From Paralvinella palmiformis (Eukaryota > Annelida > Polychaeta > Terebellida > Alvinellidae): a stretch of DNA of 64,000 nt. The position numbers were made by a program, and so were the translations under genes. Of the stretch, positions 7,346 to 48,406 are shown piece after piece. Under the pieces are notes generated by a model. The model was not told the DNA's origin. It saw nothing but the letters and a program-made list of their open reading frames with translations, and searched no databases. Location: contig JAODUP010000084.1 in the NCBI GenBank assembly GCA_025642065.1, positions 444,501-508,500 of the forward strand, in the 5' to 3' direction. The stretch's first letter is position 1; each line of letters opens with the position of its first letter.

Positions 7346-7469
7346 ATGGCGGCCCGGGGAAAGCGAAGTCGTCGCTCTACGAAAACAAATGAACATTGCC
7401 GACCGAAAACTAGCGATCGCATAGAAACTGATAGCGAAACGGCATCGTTGGATAGCAATTCGAACTTCA
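7346..7469 (+). CDS. KLF: KLF exon 1 (long form), N-terminus; donor uncertain
   Basis: The ATG sits in a strong context (AAGATGGCG) behind an in-frame stop at 7328. The frame starts MAARGKRSRR, a basic cluster, then becomes Ser/Thr/Asp-rich. It lies just upstream of exon 2 and would supply the phase exon 2 needs. The given end uses donor A|GTAGGT, leaving one base, which pairs with the two bases at the start of exon 2. Another phase-1 donor is A|GTATAT after 7526. Donors after 7510 or 7513 would fit if exon 2 began at 8317. CpG-rich sequence continues to about 7510, which favours one of the later donors. The exon is thus supported by start context and phase only; no known domain is present. 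Confidence 0.55.
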
Positions 7470-8314
7470 GTAGGTATTCGGGGAGACGATCGTCCACTGG
7501 CGACGTCTCAGTAGTAACTTTCTTTAGTATATTTGCGTGTGTTATATATACACATTACATACACTAACACACTCTAGATCTAGAATCGTTTGGTTATATG
7601 GCGGAATGACGTGGGGCCCTCTATGGGGAAGGCCACAGGATAATGGCCGTACGCCTATTTGTTTATGTCGATGTCGTAACTTACCGCTGGGCCAAGAGAT
7701 ATATACTAAATATATGTGTGTGTGTGTGTCGCGTATGGGCGCACGTGTGTGTAGTACATGATATAACTAAGTTACTAAGTATATCTTATACAGGGAATAC
7801 AGTAGAGTCTAGACTCCAGTTAGTTACCAGATTATATTGCCTATTTTTATGTGCCGTGGGTCAGTGTTAACCTATAAAACAAGCATGACGTGCTCTTATT
7901 ATAAGACCACCTCAGGCTCATGCTTGTTTTATAAGGCTTACACTTCCATTGAAATGTTGGGTATTGATGTCTGATGGCAGAACACTTGTTGTCAGAATTG
8001 AGGCACTTCCTTCTGAACTACAGTCATTGTGGTTAATGGCATTGTAATCCTGTTTGGATTATAACAAACAAATGACAACTTAATTTTTTGGTTAAAATAG
8101 TCACTATATATCCTTATATGTGTCTAGTTTTTGGCCCGTGAAAGAGAATCATCCATTTTAATCGGGTCAGTGTGTCATCTGCTTAAGAAAACTGAGTTCC
8201 CAGGACTTCGAGATATATTGATATTTTCAGGTTAATGATGAATGAAATGTGCCCCAGTAATGATATTTGTTACCATTAGTGGATATCCAATTAAACTATT
8301 GTTTTATTTTCTAG
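7470..8314 (+). other. KLF: KLF intron 1 (approximate left edge)
   Basis: Non-coding stretch between exons 1 and 2. Its only notable content is a hairpin at 7873-7933, described separately. Confidence 0.4.
7873..7933. repeat. Perfect 16-bp inverted repeat (hairpin)
   Basis: TATAAAACAAGCATGA at 7873-7888 is exactly complementary to TCATGCTTGTTTTATA at 7918-7933, with a loop of 29 bases that holds a smaller palindrome (CTTAT-T-ATAAG). Flanking CC/GG can pair with one bulge. It may be a small foldback element or a structured RNA. Confidence 0.75.
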
Positions 8315-8414
8315 AGCTAAACACAGATGAGTGCAAACCAGAATGGCTTCCTGCAACAGATGTAGCTAAACAAGAGGATAGACAAGATGATGATGGAATG
8401 GAAGATAGCCATAG
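8315..8414 (+). CDS. KLF: KLF exon 2, acidic linker
   Basis: A good acceptor (TTTTATTTTCTAG) precedes the exon and a GTTGGT donor follows. It encodes LNTDECKPEWLPATD and then an acidic stretch (QEDRQDDDGMEDSH). The exon ends with two bases (AG) that are completed by the first base of exon 3 to Ser, giving the uninterrupted junction EDSH-S-DASIEQ. That exact phase match across a 16-kb intron, with matching acidic composition on both sides, is the main support. The two-base shift acceptor CTAGAG at 8316 is an alternative. No known domain is visible. Confidence 0.6.
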
Positions 8415-9199
8415 GTTGGTGTCATAAATAAAGGCTATGCCTATCTCTGTTATCTCCCTCTATAACTGGATGCTACCAGGGTATGGGGGGGGGTTCACCC
8501 TCCCTATTTTATCATCCACATTCTGTAACCACAGCAATAAAAGATGGCAGTTCTCGTAATCCAACAGACAGCCATAAGGTCGAAATTGTGGAATGTTTTG
8601 GAGGTTAATTTATAAAACCATTCCAATATTAGCCATGGAGAGATCCCTAGAGTGGAAATAAAAAAATAATTACCTTGATAACATTTATGGAAGCTGACTG
8701 ATCATGTGTAGTTGTTACTGTTTTTCCATTTATGAATTTTGATCAGGGCCAATGTTGAGGGGGTTCCAGGATATGTCCACTTCCTGGTTTCTAAATAGCA
8801 AGTGAGCCAGAAATTATACACTTAATCAGTTGGCAATCATTTATAATATAGGTCTGATAAGCCACAAATACATCATATAAATGCTAGGAAGTTTCAGCCT
8901 GCCCCTGACCTAACCCAGGATCTTAGGAGCATGGGCTGTTCAGAAATTTTTTCACATCTTTCAGGTCTCACCATGATTGTAATCCAATTCATGCAGAATG
9001 TGTTTTCTGGCGTTCAGTTCATTTTGTTCAGGGCGTGTCTACCAGAAGGTAGAGGACAATTTGAATGAGAAATCTTCCACTCATTGCCTGTCTTCTGCAT
9101 TCAACCATATAATGGATAGCCCACACATGCAGTGTGTTGCTTTCATATGCCTGTGGATGAGATTTGGGAAGGGTTTTGTAGCATGGCATGTTTATTGCT

Positions 9200-9257
9200 G
9201 AAAATACAAAGCAAACTGTATATTTATCCAAATATATACAATTTGCTTTGTATTTTC
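9200..9257. repeat. Inverted repeat, about 24-bp arms
   Basis: The left arm 'gaaaatacaaagcaaactg' and its TA-rich continuation pair with the right arm ending 'atttgctttgtattttc', with about one mismatch and a loop near 10 bases. It is a short foldback, possibly a decayed MITE. Confidence 0.7.
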
Positions 9258-12200
9258 CATAAGAATAAAGGGCTATTTAGAATTTTGCCAAAAAAATTAC
9301 CATCTAGTTGAGGCTTGAGATTTGAGTACGATTTCTTAGGATTTTGTTTGTGCAGTTTGGCTCATCTTACTGCATGAAAGAAAAATTGTGCTTACTAGCC
9401 AGGGTTTACTATTTTGCTTTCTCCTTTCTGACAATCACTCATCAACATTCATGTGTACACAGGTGATACACAATTGTATGTTTACATTGAATTTAAATAG
9501 AAACGTGGCAATGGAGATGGCATCTCTTAAGTAGTGGGCGGGTCTTGAGTTGATAATTAACAAAATTGAAATTACTGTATCATCAGCAGCTCAAGTCATT
9601 TGAGGACCATCTGTGTGATAGCTTCAGAGTCTCTGCATTATCACTCGTTAATTTTGGGAGAATCTGCATGCTATTTTCATCACATTTGTGAATATGGAGG
9701 CTAGCCATGGTAACACCAGCAACAGTACATATTTTGCGATATAAAAATGTGTGCAATTTATGAGCTTACGTGCTAATTATCCACTGCAACCCACTGGTCA
9801 GTCTAGGTCCTCCTGTACTGTTGTGGTTAGAGCATGGTGCAACTGCAACTCACTTGTCAACCTGGGCACTCTTGTAATCTGTCAGTTATAACACTGTCCT
9901 GCACACTTCCAAGTTAGGCAATCAGTTCAAATTAAGTTGCCTGTGTTTGTGAAATTCTTTCTCCGGGAGTCGTCCCTTGGTCATATGTCTTCCCTAGGTA
10001 GGTCGTATGTAGCAAGTGTGACCAGGGCTGAGGCTAAGCTCCCTCACTCACAATAATTGCAGAGTACAGCCACCGCTCCAGGAGACATAGAGTGATCCGA
10101 GACCAGTCTGAAAATTACTCTACAGCAGTTCATCCATACTGTGAACTACTATTTAGTATAAGGTTTCACTTCTGCAGGGTTTTTTTTTCTTCTTTTTAAA
10201 GATACTCACACTTGTGCGCTGTTTCAGCCATGACTCATCCAGATAACAAACACCCAGGATGATCTCATTAGCCATGCGCTAATGGTGCCTGGATCTGGTT
10301 CTTGTTTTGTGATGCTATGCTTAGTATGGCTGTGTCTGACATCATTCTGGGAAGCTGGATTAACTGGACATTTAATTTAGAAATGTTTTAAAGCATTTGA
10401 CACTGTTGTCTTAATATTATAAATTGTTGTGGACATCTTTTATAGTTTACCTTCACCAGTCTACAGCTTTACTTTTTTTCTATTGCAAAGTGCCCCAGAA
10501 TCATTTTGTATCAGTCTGGCTGTTATATAAGTAATATTATTTTCTTCGTCTGTTAAACCGGCCCCTTTTAGCCTACTGTATGTGCACAAAAGTGGTAGCA
10601 AAATACCAATCATCTTCTTGTCTGTTATTGTGTTGAACTTTCTTTCCATTTATTTGTTGCGTTAATGATCTGTTAGCCGCAGTTCCGATATACCTAGCGA
10701 GCTGATTATCTGGACACATAGTGTGTACTTTTATATGAACACCGGCTTGAGCTCAGTTCACATATATCTACTCACTCTCCTTGGTTTCATGCTAATTGTT
10801 GTCTTTCTCTATTGAAAGTGTTTGCATGTGGTTTAGCACTGATCAGTGTTTGAGCAACGCTTTGAGCTTCAGTCAGACTCTTTATACATGCGCCACGAGG
10901 AATCTCATAGAACATAATTGTGTCTGGGTAACGAGGTGCGGAATTGCTTGCATTGGATTAGGTGTGCTAAGAAAACTGTTCGCCTTTGTACCAAAGTGTA
11001 AATTTTTTATTTGGACAAAATCTCACCACCACTGAGTGCATCACAGTACGGAGATGATCCTGTGTAGGTTATGTTCCGCATCTTTTTGTATATGCATCGC
11101 CACATCCAAACATTTACGCACACGTATAAATGCACAACAGATACATATCTGCATTTGTGTGACGGACGGAATATAGGTACGGTTAACATTTTTCTTTACA
11201 TGAAGATGTAATTTCCATAATGTTAAAGATGCTGTTTGGTTTGTACTTGTGTCTAAATGTAAAATAGCAGTCTTGTTGATATAGAGGGAGTGGCAACATT
11301 ACATCACTGACTGGTCAGTGATCAAAGGTACAGCGCGATTAAGAGATATTCTAAGACGGAGTATCACCTAAATAGTCCATATTCGTCTAGCAGGTTGTGT
11401 TCTACTTCTAGTCAAGAAAATCCCATTCATCAAGCTTTTACTGTATCCTCCGGATCTTATTTGTTTTATCACAACACATACAGATGTCATTTGTCCAGTA
11501 TTCAGTGTTTTCACATTATTTTAATTATGGCCCGCCCCCCCCCCCCAAACCCCAGCAATCTGCGTACTTTGTCAGTGGACGTTTTTCTTGTTTATTAATT
11601 CACCTTCGACTCGGTTCATTGACGACTGTGTGGCTGCTGGATGGCCTGTCTACGGGTGCTCAGCTCTGTAAGATTGGCAACTGGTCTGTGCAAACAGTTT
11701 GTAGTGTTCAGTGTATACACCGTGTAAGTGAACACTCCAGATCATAACAGGACATGTTAGGAGTAGTGCTATCCCGCTGAGAACGTTCTTAATAATCTTC
11801 ATGTGTTAGTTACCTGCGATTGTGTACGTACAAGTCGGCCATATTTTCATCAACTGACAAATGCTATTTATGTTTACAATAAACACACCGGCTTGGCGTG
11901 CCTTTATCAGCTGAGCTGACCACTTAGCAGTTGAATGAACTTTCTGCACCTTTGAATGCAGAACACATCTAGGATTGTATTTTTTTTATTATATATATTT
12001 TTGACACACACACACACATATATATATATATATGTATATATTTGAAGATGGATCCATCATCTTGTGATGATTCTCAGTGAGGTATGCTGAATGATAGCTG
12101 AGAAACATACACATCAAGCTAGTGGGGAGAGGGCTATGGTATTGAGTTGGTTAGCTTTTATGTTTCGTTCTTGGGTACATCACTTCCGGTTGGCTTTCAA

Positions 12201-14040
12201 ATGCCAGTGTTACATGTGTCTGTGGGTTGTTTCATCTGATAATTATATTTCTCCAGAGAGTCCTCCTTCCCTGTCATCCAGTTGTTACAAGTATGTGTGT
12301 CCAATTGCTGGTTGGATTCGTCATATAATTTTGTGTAAATCCTCTGACCAGAGACTCAGCGAAGTTCCATTTACAAATAACACGGTTGATTCCAGTATTC
12401 CGGTGTCAGCGGTGTTTTAATGGTCAAAGCATAGCCTTACTCAGTGATTACATTCATTACTCTAGGTTGCGGGTTCAAATCCAGCAAGCACTCATTCATT
12501 TTTATAGTGGAATGTCAAAAGCTGTGACCAACCCTTTTCTCAGTTCTACTTATCTTCTCAGAGCTGCCACAATACTTTAAATGATTGGGAAACGGTTTGT
12601 TTCAAAAACAAGGTGCAGGCTCTCCATTACATGTACATTAACAGGTGTACTGCTTAATCATGTGAATACGATTAGATGTGGGTCAGTTGACTTATAAACT
12701 TGGATAATCAGGTTTTGCCAGACTAAGTGGTTTCAGCCCGCTAGAACATCCATAACTGCATGTGAAATATATCAAGTTTTTTAAATTTCATATCTAGAAA
12801 ACATATTAATAAAATATTATCCAAAGCAGTAGATTTGCAATGCAATACACTGTGGGGTCCACGTCATTGCTGAGTTTTGTGATATGTGGGCTTGTCTCCC
12901 GTGATCAGCTGTTCAAGCAACACACTTCTAGATCCGGAACCGGACCACCTGTCGCTTTCTTGATCAATTTCTTGTATACTGCCTGCATCTGTTATACTGC
13001 AGAGAAAAATCTGAAACCTGATCTGACTGAAGTGTTACAAGGAGCTCTCCTTGCCAGGAATCATGACCTACCACAGATGAGTAGTTTTATAAGTCTGTTC
13101 TGAATTGTTGGTTGAGTGGGGGGGGGGGGGGGTTGTCCACTGGTGGTTCAGGGGTACTTAAGAAAACAATTTGATTAAAAATAGTCCTATTTGTTTTGTG
13201 ATATACAGACAATAATTTGTAAATAGTATACCTAACATAAGCCAATTTTACTTGTCATGATCGTATGTGATTCTTATGTCTTCAATAATTTCTGTTTTAT
13301 AGTTAGCAAATGGGCAAGTGACCTTTTCTTTTCACAACCAGCCTATTTTTGTTTATAAGATTATGTGTTAATCCAAATGAGAACTTGTTTTCATGTATCC
13401 ACATATCATACGCATTGGTGATTTCCATTTATGAAATGAAAATATGGGCCTCTTTTTACAAACTGCAAAACCATCCTGGAACAACACTACTACTACTTGA
13501 GTGGATCTAGCAGAAAGAATCCATATTTGTGGGTGTTTTTAGAGTGCATCATGCAAAAATTCCCATACAGCTCCTCGTTTTTTAGTTGATATTATCACAT
13601 TAAACAAAACATTCTTCACAAGGATCTTCTGTAATTTGGAAACCTTCCAAACAAAATAGGGGGAGTTAAGAAATTCAGTGTAAGACAAAATCCCTGAACA
13701 ACAACAAAATAGCATTTCGTTGTATTCAGTCATTATAAAATTCATTATAAAAATGCTTTTATTCACTCAGCTACAGCTAGACACATATTTATTTATTATA
13801 CAAAGACATAATATGAGCATCCATTCAAAGAATTACATATATTTCAAAAGCTTTCATTCTCCATTCAGATATTATAATCACAGAATTATACATATTTTAA
13901 AAAATTATTTTGTTAAACATAAATACAGCATACTGAAGTTTAAAGCCATCCTAGTTGTTTTTGATTATTTCCATGCTGTTGATATTTTGATCACAATTAT
14001 AAAAAATAATTCTTGAATTTCAACTTCATATAATTGCAGT

Positions 14041-14358
14041 TTATTTTTTACTTCTCCAACAAAGAAGAGATGTTCTTTCTTCAGGAACACGATGATATTC
14101 ATCATCTGAGTGATCTTTGAAGACCATTACTTTCATCAAAGGTTGACTTTGATTACAATTAAACGGTTTCTTCGTTGTTAGTTTTATATATAGGTATTTT
14201 GTTTTGTAAAGTTTCTTTCTTGCGTTATATTTCATATAATATGAGTTAAACATCTTCTCTCTCATCTTCAAACCATCCCAAATAAAAGGATGGTTTTTGT
14301 CTCTTTTCCTACAAAGGAATGGTGGGGCTTTTTGTCCGTATACCAAATAATTTAACAT
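14041..14358 (-). other. Unrecognised 105-codon open frame in intron 2
   Basis: A minus-strand frame begins at an ATG (14358) in weak context, MLNYLVYGQKAPPFLC, and ends LLCWRSKK with TAA at 14041. If read upstream of the ATG it gives VLAALFFVMLNYLVYG, which is signal-peptide-like, but no start codon lies further upstream: a TGA is at 14403-14401. The rest is Lys- and Tyr-rich with three Cys. An AATAAA overlaps the bases just after the stop. It matches no family I know. It could be the last exon of a small secreted-protein gene nested in the intron, a pseudogene, or chance. Confidence 0.25.
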
Positions 14359-17300: not shown

Positions 17301-17639
17301 TAGATTAATTAAAGGTATTCAAAGAACAACATGTAAAAAAAACCTGGCCAGTCAAGAACCAATCATATAAAATAAAAATGTTGGCACTTGAGCCACATTT
17401 CAACTGAGTATGGAGCAACATACAATGTACTGGTTGCTATTATATATTTTACCGCAGTAACGTATGCTACGATTCTGATGTCCAAGTTTACTATATTAGA
17501 AAGGCAGATTGTATGTGCATGCCACTGATAAACATTATAGAGACTGTGTAGGTACATCTGTGACACTTACAGAATACAAGGTTCAGATATGATACTGAAT
17601 GGCAGCAGCACTGCTTCATTTTATTGGCTGCGGATATCT

Positions 17640-17733
17640 GAATGGTGTTTCATCTTTGACTTCGCCTCATTACCTTTGGAGGTCACTAGGCCCCATTAGC
17701 CTACTTTGTGGCCGTAAAACATCAAACCTACAC
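17640..17733 (+). repeat. SINE body fragment (family of 43873-44063)
   Basis: 'tgtttcatctttgacttcg' and 'cattacctttgg', 'ccattagcctac' and 'gtggccgtaaaacatcaaa' match the full element at 43.9 kb. The tRNA-like head and the ATC tail are missing. Confidence 0.7.
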
Positions 17734-19751
17734 ACATCGGTCTATTGACACTATTATCAACATTATTTTGTAAATACTGGCATGTGCAGTTTACTTGTTA
17801 CCGAGAGCATGTGCAGTGAGAACTGTTGGATATATGCCATTATAGCAGAATACAGAAGTTAGTGACATTTCAGTTCAGAGAACTGACTTATTGCTTGATG
17901 CAGCTGTCATGGACCATTTCAATTCACTAGTTTCATCAAGATTAACATAATTAATAGTAGCATATCATAGTTATTAGAGTATTTATTTACTTTAGTTTAA
18001 GAGTTCACTTTACTGATTGTTACATGCTTGTTATATGTTCAGGCCTTTTGGTAAGATCTGGTTGATCTTTGTTCTGGAAGTCTTAGTTGAGGCGACAAAT
18101 GTATTCGCTGTAGCCATTTTGAGTCCTGCCTGTTTCATGACTAGATTGTAACATAAATTACTAGATCCAGTTGTTGTGTGCGAACATTTGCCAAACGTCA
18201 CACACACACACGCTTTCTCTCTCTCTCTCTCTCTGTGTTTGTTATTAAATGTTCTTATTACGTTGTACGTACCATATACAGTGTATTCCGACAACTGTAT
18301 GCGTAATGTGACGTTTTTATAGGTGTCTCTGGTTTTGCTTGTAGGGGGGTTGTATTCCTAGTGACTGTTATGCTGGCATAGATTCAGAAGATCATTTAAT
18401 ATGGCCGGGTCTAGTCTAGGTCATTCATTCGCTTCTAACACCAGTTTTCTACTGGTAGGAACAACGTATTGCACTACACCTGTGTCAATTGTCTTGTTGC
18501 CCAATTATCATACTGTAATTGTAAGGGAGCTTTGCTCCTAATGCTTCGTGAAATGGTGTTCATCATTGCTAGGCGTCAACCTCTAATTCTACCTGACAAG
18601 ATGAGCATCTGGTTTCTTTCACCGCTTAAACAATTATTAGTTTGTCCTAAAGATGTTTATCTTTGAAAGTGATAAGAATTATTGACGGATTGGTAACTAT
18701 CCTCTATTTTTCAGTCACATGTAATCTTTAGAAACCTGAAAATGCTGACAGGTTGGATATAGCTGCCATGGGATATAACTTCTAGCTTGAAGGCATTGCG
18801 AAGCTGATCCTGAATGCAGCATTTTACTGTTATTTATGAAACAGTTCCGTCAGAAGCATTGGTTACATCACGGTCTACTGTTATTAACGGAGCTTCAGAA
18901 TGAATTGAAGTTTAATTTGTAAAAGCATCGTAATTAAGGTGACAGTCATTTTAACATCATAATTTTTATTCGTACTAATAATATATTACTCCAAAACGTG
19001 AACAATGTAAGGTCTATTCAGCACATGCATAATAAATGATTTCTCGTAATTTGGGAAATTTGAAAAATTAGTAGCTGGGACCTGCTAATGAATACTGTAT
19101 AGAGTATCATTTAAAGGCGAAGAAGTTGACTAATGGATTATAATATCAGTCCACAAGTTAATGGGTACAAACATCAGTAAACTTCCAATGCCTATATATG
19201 TGCAACTGTGTAGCACTTTATATTGGAACATGGTAAAATGATAGTTTCCAGTCATATTTAACCTCTATGCCATTGAACAGTTAGAAATGATGATGATAAA
19301 ACATTAATATTAATATAACTTTGATACAACTTGATGTAAAACTGACTATTTGATTTAAAATCTTTAGTTGTATTGGTAAATAGTTGGCTATGTGTGGATG
19401 TCAGTTTCAGTGTGACATCAAAGATGACCTAAATACTTTCCATATTGATTTACATGAAGTGGTATAAAATATATTTACAGCTTTGTTGTGTGTTTTCAAA
19501 GTAACAAAAATGTCACAAGCACCATGCAGGTATCGTGTGTACGAGTTGTACTTAATATCATTGTATTTGCGAACATTACGGGCACTAAGGGAATAATAAC
19601 AATGGATATTTAATAAATTGTCTTTACTAGCAAAACCCGTTCGAGTGCTGTTAAGTTAGACACCAAAAATAAGGTGTACATAAAAACTTGGCGAGAAGGT
19701 GAGTTTTTAGAATTGATTTAATCTTTTCAACAGCAGACACGTCTTTCTGAT

Positions 19752-24062: not shown

Positions 24063-24063
<1 letters not shown>

Positions 24064-24109: not shown

Positions 24110-24115
<6 letters not shown>

Positions 24116-24404: not shown

Positions 24405-24546
24405 TGACGCCTCCATCGAGCAACCTAACGAAGATGGTGAAGACGAGCTGACAAGTGAGGACACTGTGTCACAGCAGCAACTGCAACATACCACCCATTC
24501 CCCGGGCAGCCCTGAAAGTTTGGGCTCGGCAACAGACTCGAAAAGT
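24405..24546 (+). CDS. KLF: KLF exon 3, acidic and Ser/Pro-rich
   Basis: The acceptor is TCTGTACAG at 24404 and the donor is AGT|GTAAGT, a strong match. One base completes the Ser codon from exon 2; the exon ends in phase 0, which exon 4 needs. It encodes DASIEQPNEDGEDELTSED followed by a Gln patch (SQQQLQ) and THSPGSPESLGSATDSKS. Acidic then SP-rich sequence is usual for the regulatory N-terminal half of KLF transcription factors, where it acts in activation or repression and is often phosphorylated; no specific domain can be named. Of the other two frames, one opens with TGA and the other stops within the exon. Confidence 0.8.
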
Positions 24547-33135: not shown

Positions 33136-33948
33136 GGTGTAGAGGAAAATTTGGCAACCTCCCCAAGGACAATGGTGTCTTGCGAGCCTGTACCTGGTGT
33201 AGCCTCGTCCTCTGTTGATTGTCAGAAAGGATCTAAAATAAATCAGGTCGGCCAGTATTTGCTGTCAAGACTGGAGCAGAGATGTCACATCAGTGTTTCT
33301 GCAGTGACAGCACCAGGAGAGAACAGTTATTTGAAAGAGTCCACTACAGGCTCACATTTGCTGGAAGGTGATGGCAGATGCAATGGACATCAGACACCAG
33401 CATTGTACAACAAACTTGGTTCATATGACTGGAAGAAGCAGGTTCTTCTTCGTACTGGCAGCACAAGCTTTGCTTGTGATGACAAAACAGACTCGGCGTC
33501 AGGTCGTGACTTTGGTGACGAAAAAGCTCAGTGTCCACTTTCACTCACAGGAGATGCCTTTAATCCTAGTCAGTATTGTAATGGTCTTCAGGCGGGCCAT
33601 CTTTCACAGCCTCAACATCCGAGGTGCACGCAGCCCACACACCCAACTGCCTTGATTGTTCCGAAGAAACGAAAATCACCACCAGCCAGTGATGATTCCT
33701 GTGATCCTACCTGCCTCAAGTCATGCCAATCACCCAACATCTGTCTGTCGGGTTCTGGATCAATGAATGGTAGTTCTTCGGCAGCTGTTGTCTTGGAAAC
33801 ACCAACATCAACAGTGATAGTGACCACGCCGCCCCTTCTGTATACCTCCAGCAAAAGCTGTTTGCCATCTGTCACAGCTCTCGGTGCTCATCACACGATG
33901 CCCCTGACCATCCCACAGTATCTCTCCTCATCGTTGTGTTATCATGGG
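33136..33948 (+). CDS. KLF: KLF exon 4, large Ser/Pro/Thr-rich regulatory exon with basic NLS
   Basis: This exon of 813 bases is open for 271 codons, the longest real coding run in the window. The acceptor TTATTTCAG precedes GGT GTA GAG and the donor GGG|GTAAGT follows; both edges are phase 0, as neighbours require. The protein is low-complexity and rich in Ser, Thr, Pro and Cys. A classical basic nuclear localisation motif, VPKKRKSP, lies at 33658-33681 (about residue 298 of the long form). Later sequence (ETPTSTVIVTTPPLL) is a Thr/Pro/Val-rich stretch typical of transactivation or repression regions. No folded domain is recognised, as expected for KLF N-terminal halves, which diverge quickly. 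The ATG-initiated open frame inside it is not a separate gene. Confidence 0.85.
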
Positions 33949-34133: not shown

Positions 34134-34271
34134 GTTAACACTGCCGCCAATGTTGGTACTGATGGATGTGTGCATAGCAAGAGGGGAAAATGCAGCAGTC
34201 CTCCATCACCTACTGGTTCCCATAGCAGCCATTCGGATGGGTTTTCTGTCAGCTCAAATGAAGCATTAGAG
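34134..34271 (+). CDS. KLF: KLF exon 5, Ser-rich segment
   Basis: It follows a short intron of 185 bases. The acceptor TTACTTTCAG is good; the donor GAG|GTTCGT is weak. Length is 46 codons, phase 0 on both sides, so the exon could be skipped without shifting frame. It encodes VNTAANVGTDGCVHSKRGKC and then SSPPSPTGSHSSHSDGFS. SPPSPTGS resembles the phosphodegron-like SP clusters of KLF5 (known for that family), but that role here is inference. Long-form splicing next joins exon 6 (45577). Confidence 0.75.
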
Positions 34272-37200: not shown

Positions 37201-37992
37201 ATGTCATGTACCAGCTGACCTCCTACAAACGAGTGTCATCATTACTACGACATAAACGTACTATACTTTTTTAAATAACATGAGAGCTAAAACAGCCGTT
37301 GTAGAAAATCTGCTACCATCATTTGTAACAGATTCCAGTAAAGTTCAGTTAGCCAGAATTCTTACTAACCACATTATAATGTCTACAAAAAACCCCGAAT
37401 AAAACCCCGCGGACATACCCTCCTGTGGGCATAACCCCCTAAATATAGGTTAATTGACAGTAATTAACACGCATAAAAATGGCTGTTAGAATATGGCCAC
37501 TGCAATTGAAAATTTGTGTTTGGCCTTGTATAGTTATATTTTGAAAAGCTCTATATTAAATTCACGTATAAACCATCTTTTTCAAAACAGCCACTGACAT
37601 TCAGGGGGTTTTGTTCAAGATGTCGTTTTCAGAATTGCAGGGGGTTTTGTCCTGGATTCATTATAAAGATCACTGGCACCAAGCAACACTAAGTGGTTCA
37701 TAGCATGAGTAACAATCATCTGCCTGCTTAATTGAGAGTTGATTGTAACACAATTTTCCCGCAACGCTTATCATCCCTTAAAAGATCGGCTCAGGAGGAT
37801 TCGTTTACGTTTAATTAGTTGTGATATAATAAATGGTTGTCATACGGAATGTACACAAACATGCCCAGGTAACGGTATTATTGTATTGGTTCCCATCCAG
37901 AACTTCAAAGCACCGAACTGTTAACAAACCTTTATGGTGTGTTTTCTGTTGACAGAAAACGGTCCACGGTTCAGAGCCAACTTATGCTTGAC

Positions 37993-37995
<3 letters not shown>

Positions 37996-38024
<29 letters not shown>

Positions 38025-38042
38025 CGCGTGTGTGTGTGTGTG
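37996..38042. repeat. (GT)n(GC)n(GT)n microsatellite
   Basis: GT units, about five GC/CG units, then GT again, located just upstream of the CpG-rich alternative promoter. Alternating purine-pyrimidine sequence of this kind can adopt Z-DNA; that is a physical possibility, not an observation. Confidence 0.9.
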
Positions 38043-38249
38043 GTGGAGTGTTTTGTATAGTTAAGAGAAGTCCTAGAGATGTGTTTTTTCCTACCCCCCT
38101 CCTTTCTCTCCTGGTTACTTCGTAATGTTTAGAGTAGGATTTTCTGGCTTTCAAACAGATGTCTTCCCCGTATTGTCAGCTAGGTGTTTCAGGTGGGCCG
38201 AGATTTCTTCGGCCGTATATCATCACGCCTAGTTAGTCAATATTTTACT

Positions 38250-38644
38250 GCTTAGTGATCACTTCTCGTAATTCCCCAACCCGGCTCTCTTGTCTCGCTC
38301 GCCTTGCCAAGCACGACAGGCTCCACCCCTTCAGCGGTGGCGTGGCGTGGCGTCAGCAACCCGCAGGTGTGTCCTGTGTGCGTCTCGTTCCAATAACCGA
38401 GCAACGTGCTGCTCAGTCACCCCCACTGGTGTTGCTGGCTGTGGCTGTTAGGCGCTAACCGTCAAAATTGGGTGTTACCCGCCACCTAGCTGTCCACTGC
38501 CTCGCCTATCTCTGGCTGCGCCATTACAAGCGTAACTTGTGTGTTTTGTTTGAAACATCTCGAGGGTCCGTCATTCGACCGACCGACAGACGACGACGAC
38601 ACCTGAATATACCCAGCTCTGGGCCTGGAACCGGAGCTGTTGGA
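38250..38644 (+). promoter_or_regulatory. KLF: CpG-rich alternative promoter/5' leader of the short KLF form
   Basis: In an AT-rich intron this block is unusually rich in CpG and G+C, and it ends in the leader of exon 1b. CACCC-type words occur at 38323-38329 (CCACCCC) and 38418-38426 (CACCCCCAC), which are candidate KLF/Sp sites. I see no clear TATA box. A start site cannot be fixed from sequence, so the left edge is only where CpG density rises. Confidence 0.55.
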
Positions 38645-38680
38645 ATGAACAAACCGAGCAACTACTGGCTGGCTCCTTGA
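38645..38680 (+). promoter_or_regulatory. KLF: Upstream ORF 1 in the exon 1b leader
   Basis: An ATG at 38645 (GGAATGAAC) opens a frame of 11 codons that ends at TGA 38678-38680, 34 bases before the main start. Confidence 0.5.
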
Positions 38681-38685
38681 GCACC

Positions 38686-38718
38686 ATGCTAGTGACAGAT
38701 CCGTACTTGTTAACATGA
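38686..38718 (+). promoter_or_regulatory. KLF: Upstream ORF 2, overlapping the main start
   Basis: An ATG at 38686 (ACCATGCTA) opens a frame of 10 codons whose TGA (38716-38718) overlaps the main ATG (38715-38717) as ATGA. This arrangement would force reinitiation or leaky scanning. Confidence 0.5.
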
Positions 38719-38954
38719 TGGGAAAGTGGTATTCTGAGCCGAGCGACTTCTGCCACCTCTGTCTGGAGCCGACCGGTGGTACGGGCAGCACACCACAGAC
38801 CGCTCCCGAAGACCTAACCGTCGCCAAGCCTGAGGACCTATCGCTGCCAAAGATCAAGTTCACGGCCACCGATATGGCGAGCATCATTCATCAGACGGTT
38901 ACCATACAGTCTCCAGTCGTACACGTAACGTGCTGCTGTAGAAACGTCATATTG
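38715..38954 (+). CDS. KLF: KLF exon 1b, alternative N-terminus with tandem CtBP-like motifs
   Basis: The main frame starts ATGATGG; the second ATG (38718) has the better context, A at -3 and G at +4. An in-frame TGA at 38646 lies upstream. It encodes 80 codons and ends at a donor TTG|GTATGT in phase 0, matching exon 6 at 45577. The N-terminus has two close Cys pairs (CHLC, then CCC further on). Residues 35-45 contain PEDLTVAKPEDLSLPK: PEDLS fits the PxDLS site bound by the corepressor CtBP in KLF3/8/12, and PEDLT is a near match. FTATDMASIIHQTVTIQSP follows. Spliced to exons 6-9 this gives about 305 residues. It could instead be a separate gene's first exon, but the phase match and related motifs in exon 6 argue against that. 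Confidence 0.7.
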
Positions 38955-39867
38955 GTATGTCAGATTGTTTATGACTGGGGGAGACAATCAGAGAGACCTG
39001 GGATGGGTGTGAAGAGGTATCCATTGGGTGTCTGGTCTTTTTGGGGTTAGGCTGGCTGAGTGAGTGAGCAAGCGAGCGAACGAGTGAGCAGTTGTCTGAG
39101 TGATTGAGTTGTTTAGCTGTTGAACCTGCCACTGAAGGGTCTAAATTGCTTATTGAAATGACGTGATTAAGCTGAAACTGGCTATTCACGTACCTATAAA
39201 TAAATAAGCACATGAGCATGATCAGTGTGACACAGCGTCATGAATAAATACAAACTTATTTTACTCAGTAATTTTTAATTTATTAGACAATTAGTCAGTG
39301 GTGGATGAGTGAATAGGTGAGTAAGTATTATGTGCAGTCTCAGCATGTTTGGGACTTACGGCGAAGGGGAAGCTCCCTGGAGGAACATCCCATAGAAACC
39401 GGTATGAGTTGGATTCAAACCCTGACCTGGAAGTTTACAGTCCATTTCTCTAACCACTGCTCTATCAGTATGTTATGCTTGTGTTCTATGAGAAGTGTGA
39501 CTAATAAGCACACAAGTCTGTGCTATGCTTTGCATGTATGAAGAGGGGGGTGGTGATGTTTTGGTTCACATTATTTCATGTCCACATTATTATTTTTAGT
39601 ATTATCGTCATCGCTGAAGGAAGTTGTATTGAGTTGTTTTAACGAGCTGGCTCGACATGTCAGCTGAATAATGCTACTGATAGATGTCTATGTCAAAGCA
39701 GAGATATTAAGTCATATCTTTGTCTGGTTTAAGATCATCTGCTTCCTGGTGACTTGCCGGTAGTTTGGTTCCTGGTCAAAATTCGTTACACAACTTCTTG
39801 TAAAAGATTACCCGAAGAAAAACCTAGTTTATTGGTACACTGAATAACTGTTTTTTTATTAACTTGT

Positions 39868-39903: not shown

Positions 39904-42825
39904 AGTGTGTGTGTGTGTTTCAAAAGATACAGAGAATTATGAACTGGGTGATACATCAAGGATACTGATTACAGAGAAGTAAATGTCTGTGATATTTAAT
40001 AGCTCACCAGTCCCTTTTAGTATGAACCTAATTTTTGACATGACCTTTTTAAAAGCCCATGGTGCAAATATAGAAAATGAAATTTTTCTCTCAGCTTTGG
40101 TACATAGAATTTAGAAACCGTATTTATTGCTGTGCTCTCTACAGACCATTCTGTGATGCTTGAATGAACACCTGTTATAATGACTGCGTTTTCAGTTTCA
40201 AGGTTTTTTCTAAACTGTGCAGCTTTGTGCAGACGGGTGTTGTTTAATTCGTAATTGGTATTTGCTTGGTCTGACAGTCTGGGGATTCAATGAGTATAAT
40301 CCAGAAATGAATATTTCCCTCACCAATTCCATTTCTTAGTCAGGATTGAGCCCCAGAGTCCTTCACTCACTTAGTATCTCCAAAACAGAAGCGGTTGTTT
40401 GCTATTGGGAATCCTGTGAGATCAGTCTGAAATTATGTGTGCATGTTTTTGGCTGGCACCGAAGCATTAAACAATAGCATTCCCCCATAAATTGATTTTT
40501 ATGGGGAAGTGAATGTCATAAAGACAACTGACTGCGCATTGTCATCTTTGTATAGGATTCCTGATCCTAATGTGGTACTTATTCCCATAATAGCATACAT
40601 AACACCTACACAGATGAGTGTTCTAGTCTCGTGAATAAACGTTAGAGACCTTTCCCAATTTGCGCTTGCCATTTGGGGAGAGCAAGAGGAACTACTGGTG
40701 TAGGGTTGAAAACTATTGCGAACAAATCTGGGCTGGTATTCGATGCTGGTAAAATGGTAATTCGCTGATGAACGGTACTCAGAATATCAGTAATATTATT
40801 TTAATGATACCTCTCTTGTTCACAAGCAAGAGCAAGGGTTTCCTGAGATATTAGTCTGATGCATGATGAGACAAGTGATTCAGAAAGAACTTGGATATGT
40901 TTAGATAAAAACAGAGGAACTATTACATATAAATGTTGCTTCTTAAGAGAAATAGTACCACAAACCGGATGTTAATGAAGTGACAATAACAGAGGTCAGT
41001 AGGAAACTGATCCTTGTATTTCGTGCAAACCAAGATACATAACAGTAACAGAAACAATAATAGTAATACAAAAGCACACTTACTTGTGTGTAAACGTATG
41101 TCAAACATGTGCACACACATTTAATTGTATAAATCCATACAGGTTAAATCTTGTAATTAATACAAGAGATGGTCTTTGTCTGCTGATTTCCATGGCATCT
41201 ACCACATATTTGTTTTTAGTATTTCGTGTTTGTTTTAAATGTCTAATAAGTGCAGAGAATAAATTGATATGTGCTAGCCTATTCAGTAATGTTTACAGAT
41301 GGATAAATGGGACAGATCTACCGAATGCCCACATGATCCCATATGTCAAATTCAAAGTTTATATCCCACAAGCGATTAAAGAAACTGAAGCAATGTACTT
41401 CTGCGCAGTTAATCCATTAACTAGCAATATCCCAAGAGGGACTTTAATCTGTAAATAAAACCAGAATTATTCAACACCTAGCTACTGAGATTGAGATACT
41501 TTCTCATTTTAGAAAAGAATGGGATAATTAAAGGCTGCAGTGATGGTAATGGGATATTCTAATTGTTGGCAACCAATGTTCATGATAATATATGTTAAAA
41601 CAGTGTAACCTCATTGAAATGATCTTTCCGAGATGTGATGTTCCAGGTTGAAAATGCCAGCATGTTGAACATAACATGGCAGTGAATGGAATTCATTTGG
41701 AGAACATTTCTTTTCTTCCATTACTACAATTCATCATATACTAACAGGGTGCCAAATTTAAGTCACAATCAACATTTTCAGTTGGGTACGTTCTTGACAG
41801 ATATAAATAATTAATCGAGGAAAACTTTTGTTTATTATTATATAGTTTTGCCTATTTGTCCTGCATGCACTTTTCATGCATGTGTGTCTGTGTTGTCTTG
41901 TGTATTGTGTGTGTGCGTGCACGCGCGCACATTAATACATTCTACGGTTATATTTAATAAAAATGAAGCGGCTACCAAAGCTTTAGTTCTGTGAATTCCC
42001 CAAAACATAAATTTACAAACAGTTAGTGAATTACACTTCTTGTTCCATGCTACTACATACGGCTTCACTGACCCGCAAACCACAGTAGGACTGCGCATGC
42101 GTCGCGGAAATTGTCTGTTTATCACGAAAAACATTGGTTTCACTTGCTCTCCCTATCTCTCTCTCTCTCTGTCTCTCTCGTTTGAATGTGGGCTTGATTG
42201 ATTGTTGAATTACAGTTCGAGAACAGTGTTGACTGGTTCCTATAAAATGTCATATTTTTGCATATATGAGAATATATTATTATCTACTTAAAATATTAAT
42301 GTTTACTCATTTAATGGGCATATTCTCTAGAATTATTAACACAATTTCGTGAGGTTGTTAGTGTTACTAATTTGATCAAGCCTCTACAAATCCCTTGTCA
42401 GTCAATCCTTGGCCCTGTATGTCCGAGTGCTGTGGCTGCCTAAACAATCACTCTCCCACTCATTCACATACTGAATGCATCCGTATAAGTGACCAAGCTG
42501 TTGACTTGATATGGTAATTTATTCGTTATAGTTGTGAAGAACATTTCTATGTTTAAACACAAATCTTATGGCATTAGACAGAAACTAAACCGCCCGATAA
42601 TTTTTGATTCTGTAATTCTTTCCTCAGACATATGCTCACAGGTCAAATATTGGCTTAAAATCCATCAAAATCCTACTAATTTTCGTCATTCGCGTAAAAG
42701 CGGGCCCAGTTGTTTCAAACTCATGGTGTCAGCAAGTTAGTGGTAAATATATCAATACCAGTTTCTTCAGCGACACACACACACACATTTTGCTTTGATG
42801 TTTTAACTAATAAACAAACTTGTCA

Positions 42826-43330
42826 CACCAAACACGCCTGATTGTAACTTCAACTGGCAAGTGTTATTAATTAATTGTTTCACGGCAAGTGGCGAGCAAC
42901 ATTTGCAATGTGAACAGTAATTTTTATTTTAATGCTAATCATCAGGAAGTCCTGGTAGTTAACAGCGCGTGACTACCAAAACTATTACATAAAGACTGGC
43001 ATGTTTGTGAGACCCCAATAACAGTTTGGTGAAAATTAATCGTAATTTATTGAATAAGAATAGAAGGCAGAGATGTGGCGATTTTGTTCCAACTATGGCT
43101 CACACAAACACCCCTGATTGTAACTTCAATAAGGCAGGTGTTATTAATTCATTGTTTCACAGCATATCTGGAGGTACTGCTAGGTAGCAGCGCGTGACTA
43201 TCAAGTATTATTACATAAAGACCGGCATGTTTATGGCTATGAGATCCAAATAAATTTTGGTGAAAATTAATTGTTATTTATTTAATAATAATGGATTTGT
43301 AGGCAGCGATGTGACTATTTTATTCTGGCT
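42826..43330. repeat. Tandem segmental duplication, about 260-bp unit, diverged
   Basis: Blocks recur in order: 'cctgattgtaacttcaa', 'gtgttattaatt.attgtttcac', 'cagcgcgtgacta', 'attacataaaga.cggcatgttt' and 'ttggtgaaaattaat'. The first copy begins near 42830, the second near 43106. Divergence is about 15-20% by eye, so it is an old event. It has no coding frame. Confidence 0.8.
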
Positions 43331-43872
43331 CTTATTCAGTTATTGGGTTGAATCCTATAATGTTGTGTGTCAAGGATGGCCGAAAACATCTTTCCTTCAG
43401 CTTGTAGGAAATATGACGCATGTATAATTCGAGGTGCTTCTGGGAACTCCCTTTTCCCTACCCAAAAAATCGACTTATACGCGAGTATATACGGTAATGT
43501 AAAACAAATAATGTAAAATCTTTTCAGAGGCCCCATTAATAATAGTTAGAATAGTCTACAAACTATATTAAGTCAGCTAGTTGTAAGTAATGCTATGTCC
43601 TGTAATAGTGACCTGTCTAATTCACAATTGTATTCAGCTTTATAATCTGTCCACTCTTTATTCATAAGAAATATTTTATTCAACGATTCTGATAAAATCA
43701 GTTTATACGTCAGTTCACCGAGGCATTTCAGGTTACTGAATGATGTTTTTTTAGCCCAGCAAACTAATCTTCAGTATAGAAATGTGGACCATAGGGTAAT
43801 ACAGTCGGGCTCTGTTATACCGCGGTCCGTTATAATACGAAATCAGATATAGCACAATCAGACCTTGAACTG

Positions 43873-44063
43873 GGGTGCCTCCGTGGTCTAACAGTAGCGT
43901 GTCGGACCACAGATCACTACCACCCGTGTTCGAATCTCGGTGTGGGCATATCTGAAGGTTGTTTCATCTTTGACTTCGCTTCATTACCTTTGAAGGTCGT
44001 TCGGCCCATTTAGCCTACCTTGTGCACAAAAGTGGCCGTAAAACATCAATCATCATCATCAAA
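43873..44063 (+). repeat. Full-length tRNA-derived SINE with ATC tail
   Basis: The head has A-box-like GTGGTCTAACAGTAGCG and B-box GTGTTCGAATCTC, followed by the body 'gtttcatctttgacttcg...aaaagtggccgtaaaacatc' and an ATC tail. It is the best copy of a family with fragments at 17640, 30046 and 60372. It lies just beside a pogo-like terminal sequence at 43802-43858 and may have inserted there. Confidence 0.8.
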
Positions 44064-45576
44064 CCCCGAATCGTGAAATCTACGACAGAGCATTTTTATG
44101 CGAAATTGCATGAATTGAAAATGTTTTCACAGTTAGTAATTCACACGTAAAACATACCCAACGTCCACAACGTACCCACGTGTATATTTGTGGATCACAA
44201 ACTTATTTACACACCACCTTGGCTCAATCAGTCAAACAAACAGCCCAATCACAACCTTTAATTATTGTGTGACTCCACCCACTAAATACGTTTGATGAAG
44301 TTTTCGTTACAAAAGCAGATACACAAACAAATATATTTTCATGGACGTTTGTTCGAGCACATGCACCTATAAACGTTCATTTATTGGTTCATATAGTTGC
44401 TACATTCATCTGTTAAACATGCGCTGTTTCTGGCAGATGAATATCACCAATCCAAGATGGCTGCTACTTTTTGCCCAATTTGGCAGAAACATTTTATTTT
44501 CCAGACAAACGCTGCTCAGTGTAACATTTATGTTTAAGTCAGCAAATGATTAAATAATTTCTGGAAACATTTATGAAATAAACAGTTGTATGTAATATTA
44601 AAGGATGGTGCAAAACAAGGTGAATACATTGACTCCCTATTATCACCCATCCCCGAGAGTGCTCTGTCTCGCTTCGTGGTCCACCTATAACATGGTCGAT
44701 AGGTTGTGGACCCCAACGACTGTGTTATATCATTACTGTAATTGTGAATGCATAAGAAAACAAAAATAAGCAATTTTTATAATGTCAAGCTGAACTTCAC
44801 TAATATTTCGGTGAAGCATATTTGTCTGGGTATTAGCCACAATGAACATTTGTTTTATAATCAGGAACACACATACACACACACACTATTTTTGAAACAC
44901 GGTAATGCTGCCATTTTTAAAGGAGAGCTAATTAATCCATTTATCACTAGTAAGAAAATTAGAACTATCAGTAGACTTGTTTACCATATTTTGAGAAGGC
45001 TACTATAGCGTAGCTTATGGCATGCTATATCATAAACCTGATTCAGATCATGTTGTTAACTCTGGGATGTTTCATCTGATGATCTTATTTCCATGGGAAG
45101 TCACCCCTTAGGCATAGATCCCAGAACTGACCAGTGTTTGGGCTAAACAGAGCAGTCAATCATTATATTTTGCGTGATATTTCCATACATCTGCTCCAAG
45201 TAGTCTTTTCATTCATGCTAGAAATGAATTTAAAAGCTTTACTTTTTTATCAACGTCAAACAGCTTTTAATGTTTGTATAAGCTAGTGATGCTGTAACGG
45301 GGGTTTTTCCCTTCTCACGTAAGGATTCAGTGGTTCTTTTGTTGCTATCTTATCTTGGGGTTAAACAAAGAGTTACTTTGTTGAACAGTAACAATACTAA
45401 CATGTGGTGATCATTTAGCATGTGGAATTTTTTGCATTATCCTATAGTGTTGCCATTTCGTGATTATCAGCACGTACATCAATCTCTCTTGACTCATATG
45501 GTTTGTGAGCTTTTAGCCATGTCATACACGAATATGGTACGAGACTGGTTTACTGTATTTGTCCTTGTCTTTTCAG

Positions 45577-45709
45577 CCATTTCAGACTGAGCCAATCAAC
45601 TTGTCAGTGAAACGTGACTGCCACAGCAACCGGACACCAGTAAATTCAAGCCTAACTTGTTGTCCTTGCCAGCACTTAGCGGAGCCCCTAAATCTTGGAC
45701 TTAAAAAAG
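45577..45709 (+). CDS. KLF: KLF exon 6, CtBP-binding-like motifs
   Basis: The exon follows acceptor CTTTTCAG and ends at AAG|GTATGC in phase 1. It begins PFQTEPINLSVKRDC and later has EPLNLGLKK. The first block lines up with the FQTQTEPVDLS region of vertebrate KLF12, whose PVDLS core binds CtBP; Asn replaces Asp here. PLNLG is a second, looser match. This is the common exon joined by both the long form (from 34271) and the short form (from 38954). A second in-frame acceptor nine bases on (TTTCAG at 45585) would drop only PFQ. The Cys-rich middle (LTCCPCQ) is unexplained. Confidence 0.85.
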
Positions 45710-45929: not shown

Positions 45930-46002
45930 ATCATGATGATGGACAGTTAACATATCACTGTTATGATGTTCCAGCACAAGCCCATCTACGTACTACTTGT
46001 AG
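45930..46002 (+). CDS. KLF: KLF exon 7, 73-base exon
   Basis: Exon 6 ends one base into a codon and exon 8 begins with one base that needs two before it, so an exon of length 1 mod 3 must lie between. Exactly that is found: acceptor CATTACAG, 73 bases, donor AG|GTTAGT. It completes an Asp codon and reads HDDGQLTYHCYDVPAQAHLRTTC with a shared Ser at the next junction. The segment has no known domain. Skipping it would shift the frame and remove the zinc fingers, so it should be constitutive. Confidence 0.8.
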
Positions 46003-47615
46003 GTTAGTGGAAATTAATTTTGCATTTTTCCCTTGTGCATGTAATATGAGCACTTTAGCTAGGTGATGCATGCCCTCAAAATTGCCAAAATATTGTATCT
46101 CAATGAAGGCCAAAAGTAACATTTTAAATTATTTCTGAACCAAACCAACAGCATATATGGCAAGCTCTTGATCCAATAGGTTAAAATTAACATTTCAGGT
46201 AAATAGTGATGTTTTAAATTAATTTTGTTTTGCTTATTTCGGACCAATTCTGGAGACTTGTGATACACTGAAAAATTGTTTCTCATTCTCCTAGTAGCAA
46301 TACTTGTATGACGAAAACTGTAATAAATTCTCTACTAATTCACAAACTTTTGTAAGCCCAATTACCATGACATTTAAATATAAATAATGTATTTGTTCAA
46401 TAGACAATGAGATTTATCACCATTTATGAAATGGACCAGATGTTCTTTTTGAACTAGTTCGATGCAAAACCAACTGATTCACAACACTTTCTAAGCGAGC
46501 AGTTGAACAGTGTGAGTGTGTTTTATCTTAGGCCAAGATGTTGAGAGGTAAATTGTTTTTACTTAATTGTCCATGCTCAGACCAATCTCGGCAATGATCA
46601 TTTACCGGATTACTTGCCATTATTTTGTCTTCATAATAATGCTAGTAATTAGACGCCAGAGTAGAAATATTTCTGTAACATTGCCATCATCACTGTTTGC
46701 CCATCTTTATGGGCTTTGTTTCACTTCACTGGCATTACGTGCAGAATTCTGTCATCACACAAGATTCAAATCAAGCAGATGATAAGCATTTGGGTCTTTT
46801 TGCAGTAACTGATAAAAGAAATAATATAAATTTAATATAATATACATATAAGTTATACTAAATTCACATTTAAATAAAAAAAAAATATTATATGTAAACT
46901 ACTTTTTAGTTATGGTTTAAAAAATTTAAATACAGTCAAATATATGAATAAGTTTTCAGTATTTTTAAATATTTTGACAATTTTATAGTTTAAGACATTT
47001 TTAAAATCTGTATGAAATTCACTAAATGTGGAAGCTTAGAATTAATTCACTAAGAGGTACTGTAATCCAAATAAGTTATTTAAATGAGTAGTTCAGCCAA
47101 ATAACTACCTTGAGTGCGATAACACTGAGCCAGTAATATTATATAAACAACTTCATACATTTGTATGATTTCTGTGTCTGGTTTAATTCAGTAGCTTTCG
47201 TCATATCCCAGCCTAGCTATGTCTGAAGTGTTTCTTCTTTCACTTCACCTTGTTACTTTTGGTGTTTTCTTGGTGTATTAACCATCAGTAACAACAATAT
47301 TTCCGTGACTGTTTGTGTGAGTAGTCATGCCCAGAAAATGTTTGCCACATTAATACATTAGCTTTGTGTTTGGTTCCTGCTACATACATGCGTACAGTGT
47401 TTTTTTTTATAGAGAGCACACTGTCGAGGTCGTCAGTACTGTCTGTCAAAGTTTAACGTACATTCACACTTAAATTTATCAATATGTGAATCCAGGGCTT
47501 CATGCGTGTTTTGTGTTCAACGAGATTGGTTCAGTGGTGGATGTCGCAATAATAAAATGTTATACATTCATGTGACATAATGCAGCAGTGATTTTTGTTT
47601 TCCTTTCTTTTGCAG
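46003..47615 (+). other. KLF: KLF intron 7, about 1.6 kb
   Basis: No exon is seen. Around 47222-47290 a weak trace of the 43.9 kb SINE body occurs; the rest is AT-rich. Confidence 0.6.
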
Positions 47616-47914
47616 CAGTGCACAGCCCACTGACTTTTACAGAACTGACTGCCACTTGGCGAAGTGCCGATCACACCACTGTTATGGAAGTTCATATTCG
47701 GCATCACCTCCACCTTCACACCAACCATATCATGTACCTGTTGGCTACATGCACAATGGTCAAGTCTTGCCCGAGTCTTCGCCATCACCGCCAGCAGCCT
47801 CTGGGAGCCCGTCTAGCCCAAACAAGAAGCGAAACCATCGGTGTGATCATCCAGGGTGTGGGAAGGTCTACACGAAGAGCTCTCATCTCAAGGCCCACAA
47901 ACGTACACACACAG
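47616..47914 (+). CDS. KLF: KLF exon 8, Pro/Ser linker and first C2H2 finger
   Basis: The acceptor reads TTTTGCAGCAG, a NAGNAG site, so use of the second AG removes one Ser (start 47619). The exon reads [10 protein letters not shown], then a Ser/Pro/His/Tyr-rich stretch ([17 protein letters not shown]) and [18 protein letters not shown]. From 47842 the first finger begins: CDHPGC, then [16 protein letters not shown]. Its contact residues by the usual C2H2 scheme are Lys, His and Ala, as in KLF and Sp proteins. NKKR just before it extends the basic patch common at the start of KLF fingers. The donor ACAG|GTCAGT splits the linker THTG after its first Gly base, phase 1. Confidence 0.95.
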
Positions 47915-48233
47915 GTCAGTTTTTCCACCATTGTCATGTGGTCAGTTAAGACAGATTTATACAATAATGCTTAATAAGTTTGTTTGTTTCTTACTCGTTC
48001 TCTGCAATGCCAAAGAACAGTTTTCTGAATCCAGTGCTCTATAAGTTAGCCGTCATCGTTGTTATATTTATTGTTTATGGTTTTAATGTGCTTGTTTCTT
48101 TATGTACTTCGTGAAACCTGTACCCAGTTAGTTACTGTCTACCTTCAGCAACTCTTAAGTCAGCTGTTAATGTAAAATCTGGTTAAACGATCAGAATAAG
48201 GCCAAAATGGTGATCGTTCATTTTCCAATCCAG

Positions 48234-48406
48234 GCGAAAAGCCATACAGGTGTACGTGGGAAGGATGTGCATGGAGATTTGCTAGATCTGACGAGCTGAC
48301 ACGGCACTATCGTAAGCATTCAGGAGAGAAGCCCTTCAAGTGCACGGTGTGTGATAGACACTTTTCACGATCTGACCACCTCTCACTACACATGAAGAGG
48401 CACTGA
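48234..48406 (+). CDS. KLF: KLF exon 9, fingers 2 and 3, C-terminus
   Basis: Acceptor CCAATCCAG; the first two bases complete Gly of the linker TGEKPY. Finger 2 is [20 protein letters not shown] with contacts Arg, Glu, Arg; finger 3 is [21 protein letters not shown] with Arg, His, Leu. The TGA follows directly at 48404. All six Cys and six His zinc ligands of the three fingers are intact. Such fingers bind GC-rich and CACCC boxes in the nucleus. [10 protein letters not shown] and [14 protein letters not shown] are KLF signatures. MKRH ends are typical of KLF1/2/4-7, whereas KLF3/8/12 usually end R(R/K)RH plus a few residues. Together with the CtBP-like motifs in exon 6 this leaves KLF3/8/12 versus KLF5 open. 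Confidence 0.97.

What the first reader, a model, noticed from the sequence alone, without database searches (positions are those of the whole stretch)
7346..48406. One KLF gene with two promoters, assembled from nine short exons plus exon 1b
Seen: splice sites and phases chain exactly from 8315 to 48406 (100+142+813+138+133+73+299+173 bases), and exon 1b (240 bases) enters exon 6 in the same phase. Known: vertebrate KLF3 and KLF8 have alternative promoters. Inferred: the long form has about 360 extra N-terminal residues that the short form lacks, replaced by an 80-residue head, so the two forms should differ in cofactor use while sharing DNA binding.
Basis: partly seen in the sequence, partly recalled or inferred. 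Interest (0 to 1): 0.75.

Follow-up and report, generated by a model that had tools for sequence, protein, structure and literature searches.

The report
Annelid KLF gene, two start exons
A vent-worm gene for a three-zinc-finger DNA-binding regulator appears to have two alternative starts, and the short version carries extra motifs of the kind that recruit a gene-silencing partner; the short version matches an annotated protein, the long version still needs RNA evidence.

Summary
All exon borders of the reported chain are present, with AG/GT sites and matching phases, giving a long form of 664 aa and a short form of 305 aa. The short form is letter for letter the public protein LSH36_84g05035 of the hydrothermal-vent annelid Paralvinella palmiformis. 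This names the organism and supports junction 38954/45577 at the level of an annotated gene model. The C-terminus has the exact KLF/SP three-finger pattern. No row named Paralvinella with the long form appeared, so junction 34271/45577 is inferred. A CpG footprint supports two promoters indirectly: CpG is near expectation upstream and over exon 1a and collapses near 7750, and the only CpG-island-like stretch inside the gene surrounds exon 1b. Exon 1b carries tandem CtBP-type motifs (PEDLT, PEDLS). The long form's 439 private residues carry none, which chance alone would also give, and include an acidic stretch. My reading is a promoter switch between a CtBP-docking form and an acidic form with the same fingers. 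The main rival is two adjacent genes. Alternative KLF promoters are not new. Interest is modest.

The parts
7346..7469 (+). exon 1a: long-form start codon, 41 codons plus 1 base; least certain exon (donor GTAGGT)
   Evidence: lies in the CpG-rich 7251-7750
8315..8414 (+). exon 2, 100 nt; start of the acidic stretch
24405..24546 (+). exon 3, 142 nt; end of the acidic stretch
33136..33948 (+). exon 4, 813 nt, phase 0/0; Ser/Thr-rich, with a basic KKRK patch
34134..34271 (+). exon 5, 138 nt, phase 0/0
37961..39180 (.). CpG-island-like stretch around exon 1b, putative internal promoter
   Evidence: GC 0.52, CpG o/e 0.80; the 514-nt 5' flank 38201-38714 has 34 CpG and GC 0.545, reached by 0 of 772 overlapping gene-body windows
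38715..38954 (+). exon 1b: short-form start and 80 private residues
   Evidence: upstream in-frame TGA at 38646; no good acceptor just upstream
38805..38843 (+). tandem CtBP-type motifs PEDLT (38805-38819) and PEDLS (38829-38843)
   Evidence: 0 of 20000 shuffles of the head reach two matches
45577..45709 (+). exon 6, shared; looser CtBP-like motifs PINLS (45592-45606) and PLNLG (45685-45699)
45930..46002 (+). exon 7, shared, 73 nt
47616..47914 (+). exon 8, shared: linker and zinc finger 1
48234..48406 (+). exon 9, shared: zinc fingers 2 and 3 and the stop codon

Best explanation
It is one KLF-type transcription factor gene of Paralvinella palmiformis with two promoters. The upstream promoter (near 7250-7750) makes a 664-aa form with an acidic, Ser/Thr-rich N-terminus. 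The internal promoter, in a CpG-rich stretch within intron 5, makes a 305-aa form whose 80-residue head carries tandem PEDLT/PEDLS motifs. Both forms share exons 6-9, with two looser CtBP-like motifs and the same three fingers, so they should compete for the same GC/CACCC sites. The short form should recruit CtBP more strongly and act as the stronger repressor; the long form should be a weaker repressor or an activator. Shown: exon chain, identity of the short form to an annotated protein, finger architecture, motifs and CpG pattern. Inferred: transcription of the long form, both transcription starts, CtBP binding and opposite activity. The confidence given is for one gene with two starts; the cofactor switch I put at about 0.3.
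For: Exon chain and frames; splice-site ranks; short form identical to LSH36_84g05035; KLF/SP finger pattern and D44; best-scoring KLF among solved structures is KLF5; CpG o/e 0.96 over 1-7345 and 1.15 over 7346-8000 against 0.51 and 0.44 over 8001-24404 and 24405-35000, falling from 15 to 2 CpG per 250 nt at 7750; the 5' flank of exon 1b exceeds 772 of 772 gene-body windows in CpG count and GC; tandem PxDL[ST] in exon 1b, 0 of 20000 shuffles. Promoters are hypomethylated and gene bodies more methylated in Owenia and Capitella (PMC11292947, passages); low CpG o/e is taken as a sign of gene-body methylation in Platynereis (PMC8330077, passages).
Against: No row named Paralvinella with a long form among the 17 hits and the 120 listed; both consider only about 366-1162 aa. 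Out-of-sample codon scores of exons 1a-5 are only modestly above non-exon sequence (fractions 0.012-0.12), and exon 3 scores lower in its used frame (5.9) than in its two closed frames (18.1, 17.3). CpG o/e is 0.69 over 35001-37500, close to the downstream flank (0.75), as two genes would also give, and 0.81 over 41601-44400 in intron 5; other intronic patches reach 0.7-1.0 without a known promoter. Directly upstream of exon 1a, 6751-7250 has only 5 CpG per 250 nt, and 6832-7345 has GC 0.36. In Owenia and Capitella only 7.71% and 14.08% of unmethylated regions lie in promoters (PMC11292947), so a CpG-rich gap is weak evidence for a promoter. The lack of PxDL[ST] in the long head is what about 96% of its shuffles show too. 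A lone AAVVL (Sin3-type) match in exon 4 is at chance level (p 0.19).
Confidence: 0.68

Rival explanations
1. Two adjacent genes: an unrelated upstream gene made of exons 1a-5, ending by read-through of exon 5 or at other exons, and a separate short KLF gene starting at exon 1b.
For: The public collection holds the short form as a protein of its own. Exon 5 read-through meets a stop after 11 codons (stop codon ends at 34307), and an AATAAA/ATTAAA hexamer lies at 34460. CpG o/e recovers between 35 and 39 kb.
Against: No Pfam match at E <= 1 has its best stretch in residues 1-439, and the exon 4 open frame has none at E <= 0.1; the region looks like the low-complexity N-terminus of a nuclear factor. 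Phase 0 matches exon 6. Such hexamers are frequent there (11 in 34271-38700). No separate upstream protein of about 366-1162 aa was among the 17 hits; a shorter one was not searched for.
Confidence: 0.2
2. Only the short form is real; exons 1a-5 are a chain of chance open frames.
For: Only the short form was found among public proteins. Codon scores of exons 1a-5 are modest. In the exon scan, the best minus-strand control (21.3) beats exon 2 (18.9).
Against: The 299-codon open frame holding exon 4 is the longest on either strand of the window; 0 of 230 control segments of 813 nt were open. The acceptors of exons 4 and 5 are in the top 0.23% and 0.11% of AG sites. CpG depletion starts just after exon 1a, not at exon 1b.
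Confidence: 0.06
3. Exon 1b is an internal cassette exon, not a first exon.
For: Its frame fits between exons 5 and 6 in phase 0.
Against: Of the AG sites scanned (38401-38900), those upstream of 38715 that leave the frame open rank at best in the top 24%, and those inside the exon at best in the top 20%. The exon lies in the CpG-rich stretch and starts with ATG after an in-frame stop.
Confidence: 0.06

Closest known systems
KLF3/KLF8/KLF12 (CtBP-recruiting KLFs)
   Same: Three-finger domain, CtBP-type PxDL[ST] motif before the fingers; Klf8 has a named 'promoter 1a' (PMC4056533, methods passage). One source lists the PVDLS/T site for KLF3, 5, 8 and 12 (PMC5369966, passages)
   Different: Motifs are PEDLT/PEDLS, tandem and confined to an alternative first exon, not PVDLS/T; fingers match recalled KLF3/8/12 no better (64-68 of 83) than recalled KLF5, 6 or 7 (69-70 of 83)
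Spiralian KLF1-8+12 group
   Same: Spiralian KLFs of which many cannot be assigned orthology; some spiralian sequences carry a PVDLS domain (PMC7661307, parts 1-2 of 6 read)
   Different: A promoter-dependent N-terminus is not mentioned in the parts read
KLF6 splice variants (KLF6-SV1)
   Same: One KLF gene giving functionally opposed isoforms (PMC7140685, passages)
   Different: KLF6-SV1 loses the fingers; here both forms keep the fingers and differ in the head

Membership tests
KLF/SP transcription factors | C-X4-C-X12-H-X3-H-X7-C-X4-C-X12-H-X3-H-X7-C-X2-C-X12-H-X3-H (PMC7661307) | tested here: met
   exact match over the last 81 residues
KLF/SP transcription factors | Asp at position 44 (PMC7661307) | tested here: met
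   D found, counting from the first Cys of the pattern
KLF rather than SP | no Buttonhead box | tested here: met
   no CxCxxC or CxCPxC in residues 1-580 of the long form (crude recalled pattern; the 1b head was not scanned)
KLF3/8/12 subgroup | CtBP-binding PVDLS/T motif | tested here: inconclusive
   PEDLT and PEDLS in exon 1b, PINLS and PLNLG in exon 6, no PVDL
KLF3/8/12 subgroup | finger sequence grouping with KLF3/8/12 | tested here: inconclusive
   recalled human fingers: KLF5 70, KLF6 69, KLF7 69, KLF12 68, KLF3 67, KLF4 65, KLF8 64, KLF15 57, KLF9 53 of 83; no tree built
KLF3/8/12 subgroup | physical CtBP binding and repression | not testable with these tools
   needs protein or cell assays
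alternative-promoter gene | two transcription starts joined to common exons in RNA | not testable with these tools
   no RNA data at hand; CpG footprints only

The most novel reading that the evidence does not exclude
Promoter choice within one annelid KLF gene switches corepressor docking: the internal promoter adds tandem CtBP motifs and removes an acidic N-terminus, turning one set of fingers from an activator-like into a dedicated repressor form, with the internal start kept as a CpG-rich gap in an otherwise CpG-depleted gene body.
Probability: 0.3. Interest if true: 0.55.

Novelty: new member of a known kind. Interest (0 to 1): 0.35.

Why it matters
If the long form is confirmed, a single invertebrate KLF gene would do by promoter choice what mammals are described as doing with separate activator and repressor KLF groups (PMC5369966, passages). 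It would also show that a public gene model holds only the short form of this locus. It gives a directly testable case of an internal promoter lying in a CpG-rich gap within a CpG-depleted gene body.

Tried and rejected
Search of the long form with words from its first 500 residues: 17 hits among the 7989 candidates scored (a capped set), each annotated with C2H2 zinc-finger Pfam domains. Search over residues 430-664: 6480 hits at E <= 1e-10 among 6850 candidates, of which 120 were listed, mostly multi-finger proteins. No listed row is named Paralvinella, but some rows have no name, and both searches consider only about 366-1162 aa. An identical long form should have topped, since 226 identical residues gave 528 bits and the best row has 426; that is my inference. 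Short-form search over residues 1-226 (about 168-533 aa): 1 of 193 candidates at E <= 10, itself, so conservation of exon 1b could not be tested. Exon 1b as a cassette exon: disfavoured for lack of a good acceptor. Sin3-type AAVVL in exon 4: chance level. Structure of the short form without an alignment: mean pLDDT 31, uninformative. The exon scan used a codon model trained on the same exons and is circular, and its best minus-strand control (21.3) exceeds exons 2 (18.9) and 7 (9.0). No Rfam match at the gathering score and no tRNA in the window. KLF-site-like hexamers upstream of 1b (CCACCC 38323, CCCGCC 38478) were not tested against chance and are not used. Paper search and the passages added nothing that I use beyond PMC7140685.
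Full report
What was checked. The long chain 1a-2-3-4-5-6-7-8-9 gives 664 aa and the short chain 1b-6-7-8-9 gives 305 aa. In 9 of 9 long-form exons the used frame is open, and in 8 of 9 it is the only open frame. Splice sites rank well as a set: 8 acceptors in the top 0.03-8.9% of 3523 AG sites and 9 donors in the top 0.16-15.2% of 4393 GT sites, by recalled weights. Short open segments between AG and GT are common by chance (40 of 234 at 100 nt), long ones are not (0 of 230 at 813 nt). Exon 1a has the weakest donor and stays the least certain exon.

Organism and annotation. A search with the pre-finger part of the short form returned one protein at E <= 10 among 193 candidates, the 305-aa 'hypothetical protein LSH36_84g05035 [Paralvinella palmiformis]', identical over its whole length. 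The species is an alvinellid annelid. The public model therefore is the short form. Whether RNA supported that model I could not see: the genome paper is not held. No row named Paralvinella was listed among the 17 hits or the 120 listed of 6480, which consider only about 366-1162 aa. A separate upstream protein shorter than that cannot be excluded.

Family. The C-terminal 81 residues match the KLF/SP pattern exactly, with the Asp at position 44 and no Buttonhead-type motif in residues 1-580 of the long form (criteria from PMC7661307, parts 1-2 of 6 read). Among solved structures the best KLF is KLF5 (166 bits), ahead of KLF4 (153 bits); four multi-finger chains rank higher by summing several finger stretches (60 of 246 rows shown). 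By recalled human fingers KLF5, 6, 7, 12 and 3 lie within 67-70 of 83 identities, so the subgroup is open, as PMC7661307 reports for many protostome sequences of this group.

Two promoters. In annelids studied by others, promoters are hypomethylated and gene bodies more methylated (PMC11292947, passages), and low CpG o/e is read as a trace of methylation (PMC8330077, passages). Here CpG o/e is 0.96 over 1-7345 and 1.15 over 7346-8000, then 0.51 over 8001-24404 and 0.44 over 24405-35000, while TpG/CpA rises from 1.18 and 1.04 to 1.35 and 1.34. The drop is sharp: 18 and 15 CpG per 250 nt in 7251-7750, then 2, 3, 0, 2, 0. Three CpG-island-like stretches exist in the window by the thresholds (3241-5280, 37961-39180, 54521-55100), and the only one inside the gene contains exon 1b. 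Its 514-nt 5' flank has 34 CpG and GC 0.545; 0 of 772 overlapping gene-body windows reach either value. Against this, other intronic patches also have CpG o/e of 0.7-1.0 at ordinary GC. The 500 nt just before the exon 1a block hold only 5 CpG per 250 nt. In Owenia and Capitella only 7.71% and 14.08% of unmethylated regions are promoters (PMC11292947). The footprint is therefore suggestive, not proof.

What the two heads carry. The 80 residues of exon 1b hold PEDLT and PEDLS eight residues apart, start to start; 0 of 20000 shuffles reach two such matches. The 439 residues private to the long form hold none, which about 96% of their shuffles show too, so that absence is not itself significant. 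They include a 40-residue stretch, picked as the most acidic, with 17 acidic and 2 basic residues. The shared exon 6 has PINLS and PLNLG, looser CtBP-type matches (shuffle p 0.0007 for two). CtBP binds factors through PLDLS-type motifs (PMC9907507, passages), and KLFs with PVDLS/T are described as recruiting CtBP (PMC5369966, passages).

Weak points. Codon scores trained on the annotated short form support exons 1a-5 only modestly: 0.054, 0.120, 0.104, 0.012 and 0.037 of 2000 non-exon segments score as high, and exon 3 scores lower in its used frame than in its two closed frames. Two adjacent genes remain possible: exon 5 read-through meets a stop after 11 codons, a poly(A)-type hexamer lies at 34460 (one of 11 in 34271-38700), and CpG recovers between 35 and 39 kb. 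RNA across 34271/45577 decides.

Verdict.

Noticed in passing
window 35616-35724 (+): Strongest splice-site pair among the 22 candidates listed in the exon scan (acceptor 8.3, donor 8.0), within intron 5; read after exon 5 it gives a stop at its second codon, so a possible poison exon of the long form.
   Followed up: partly
window 52990-53415 (+): Reverse-transcriptase fragment (PF00078, E 2.4e-5, below the gathering score), probably a degenerate retroelement.
   Followed up: partly
window 42856-43295: Direct repeats of 32-50 nt, 82-91% alike, 225-277 nt apart, beside a patch with CpG o/e 0.91-1.02 at 43.2-44.4 kb: possibly a young insertion.
   Followed up: no
window 3090-3589: 500-nt (TGAG)n array overlapping a CpG-island-like stretch at 3241-5280 that ends about 2 kb upstream of exon 1a.
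   Followed up: no
window 63726-63824: 48-nt unit repeated 2.1 times at 100% identity.
   Followed up: no
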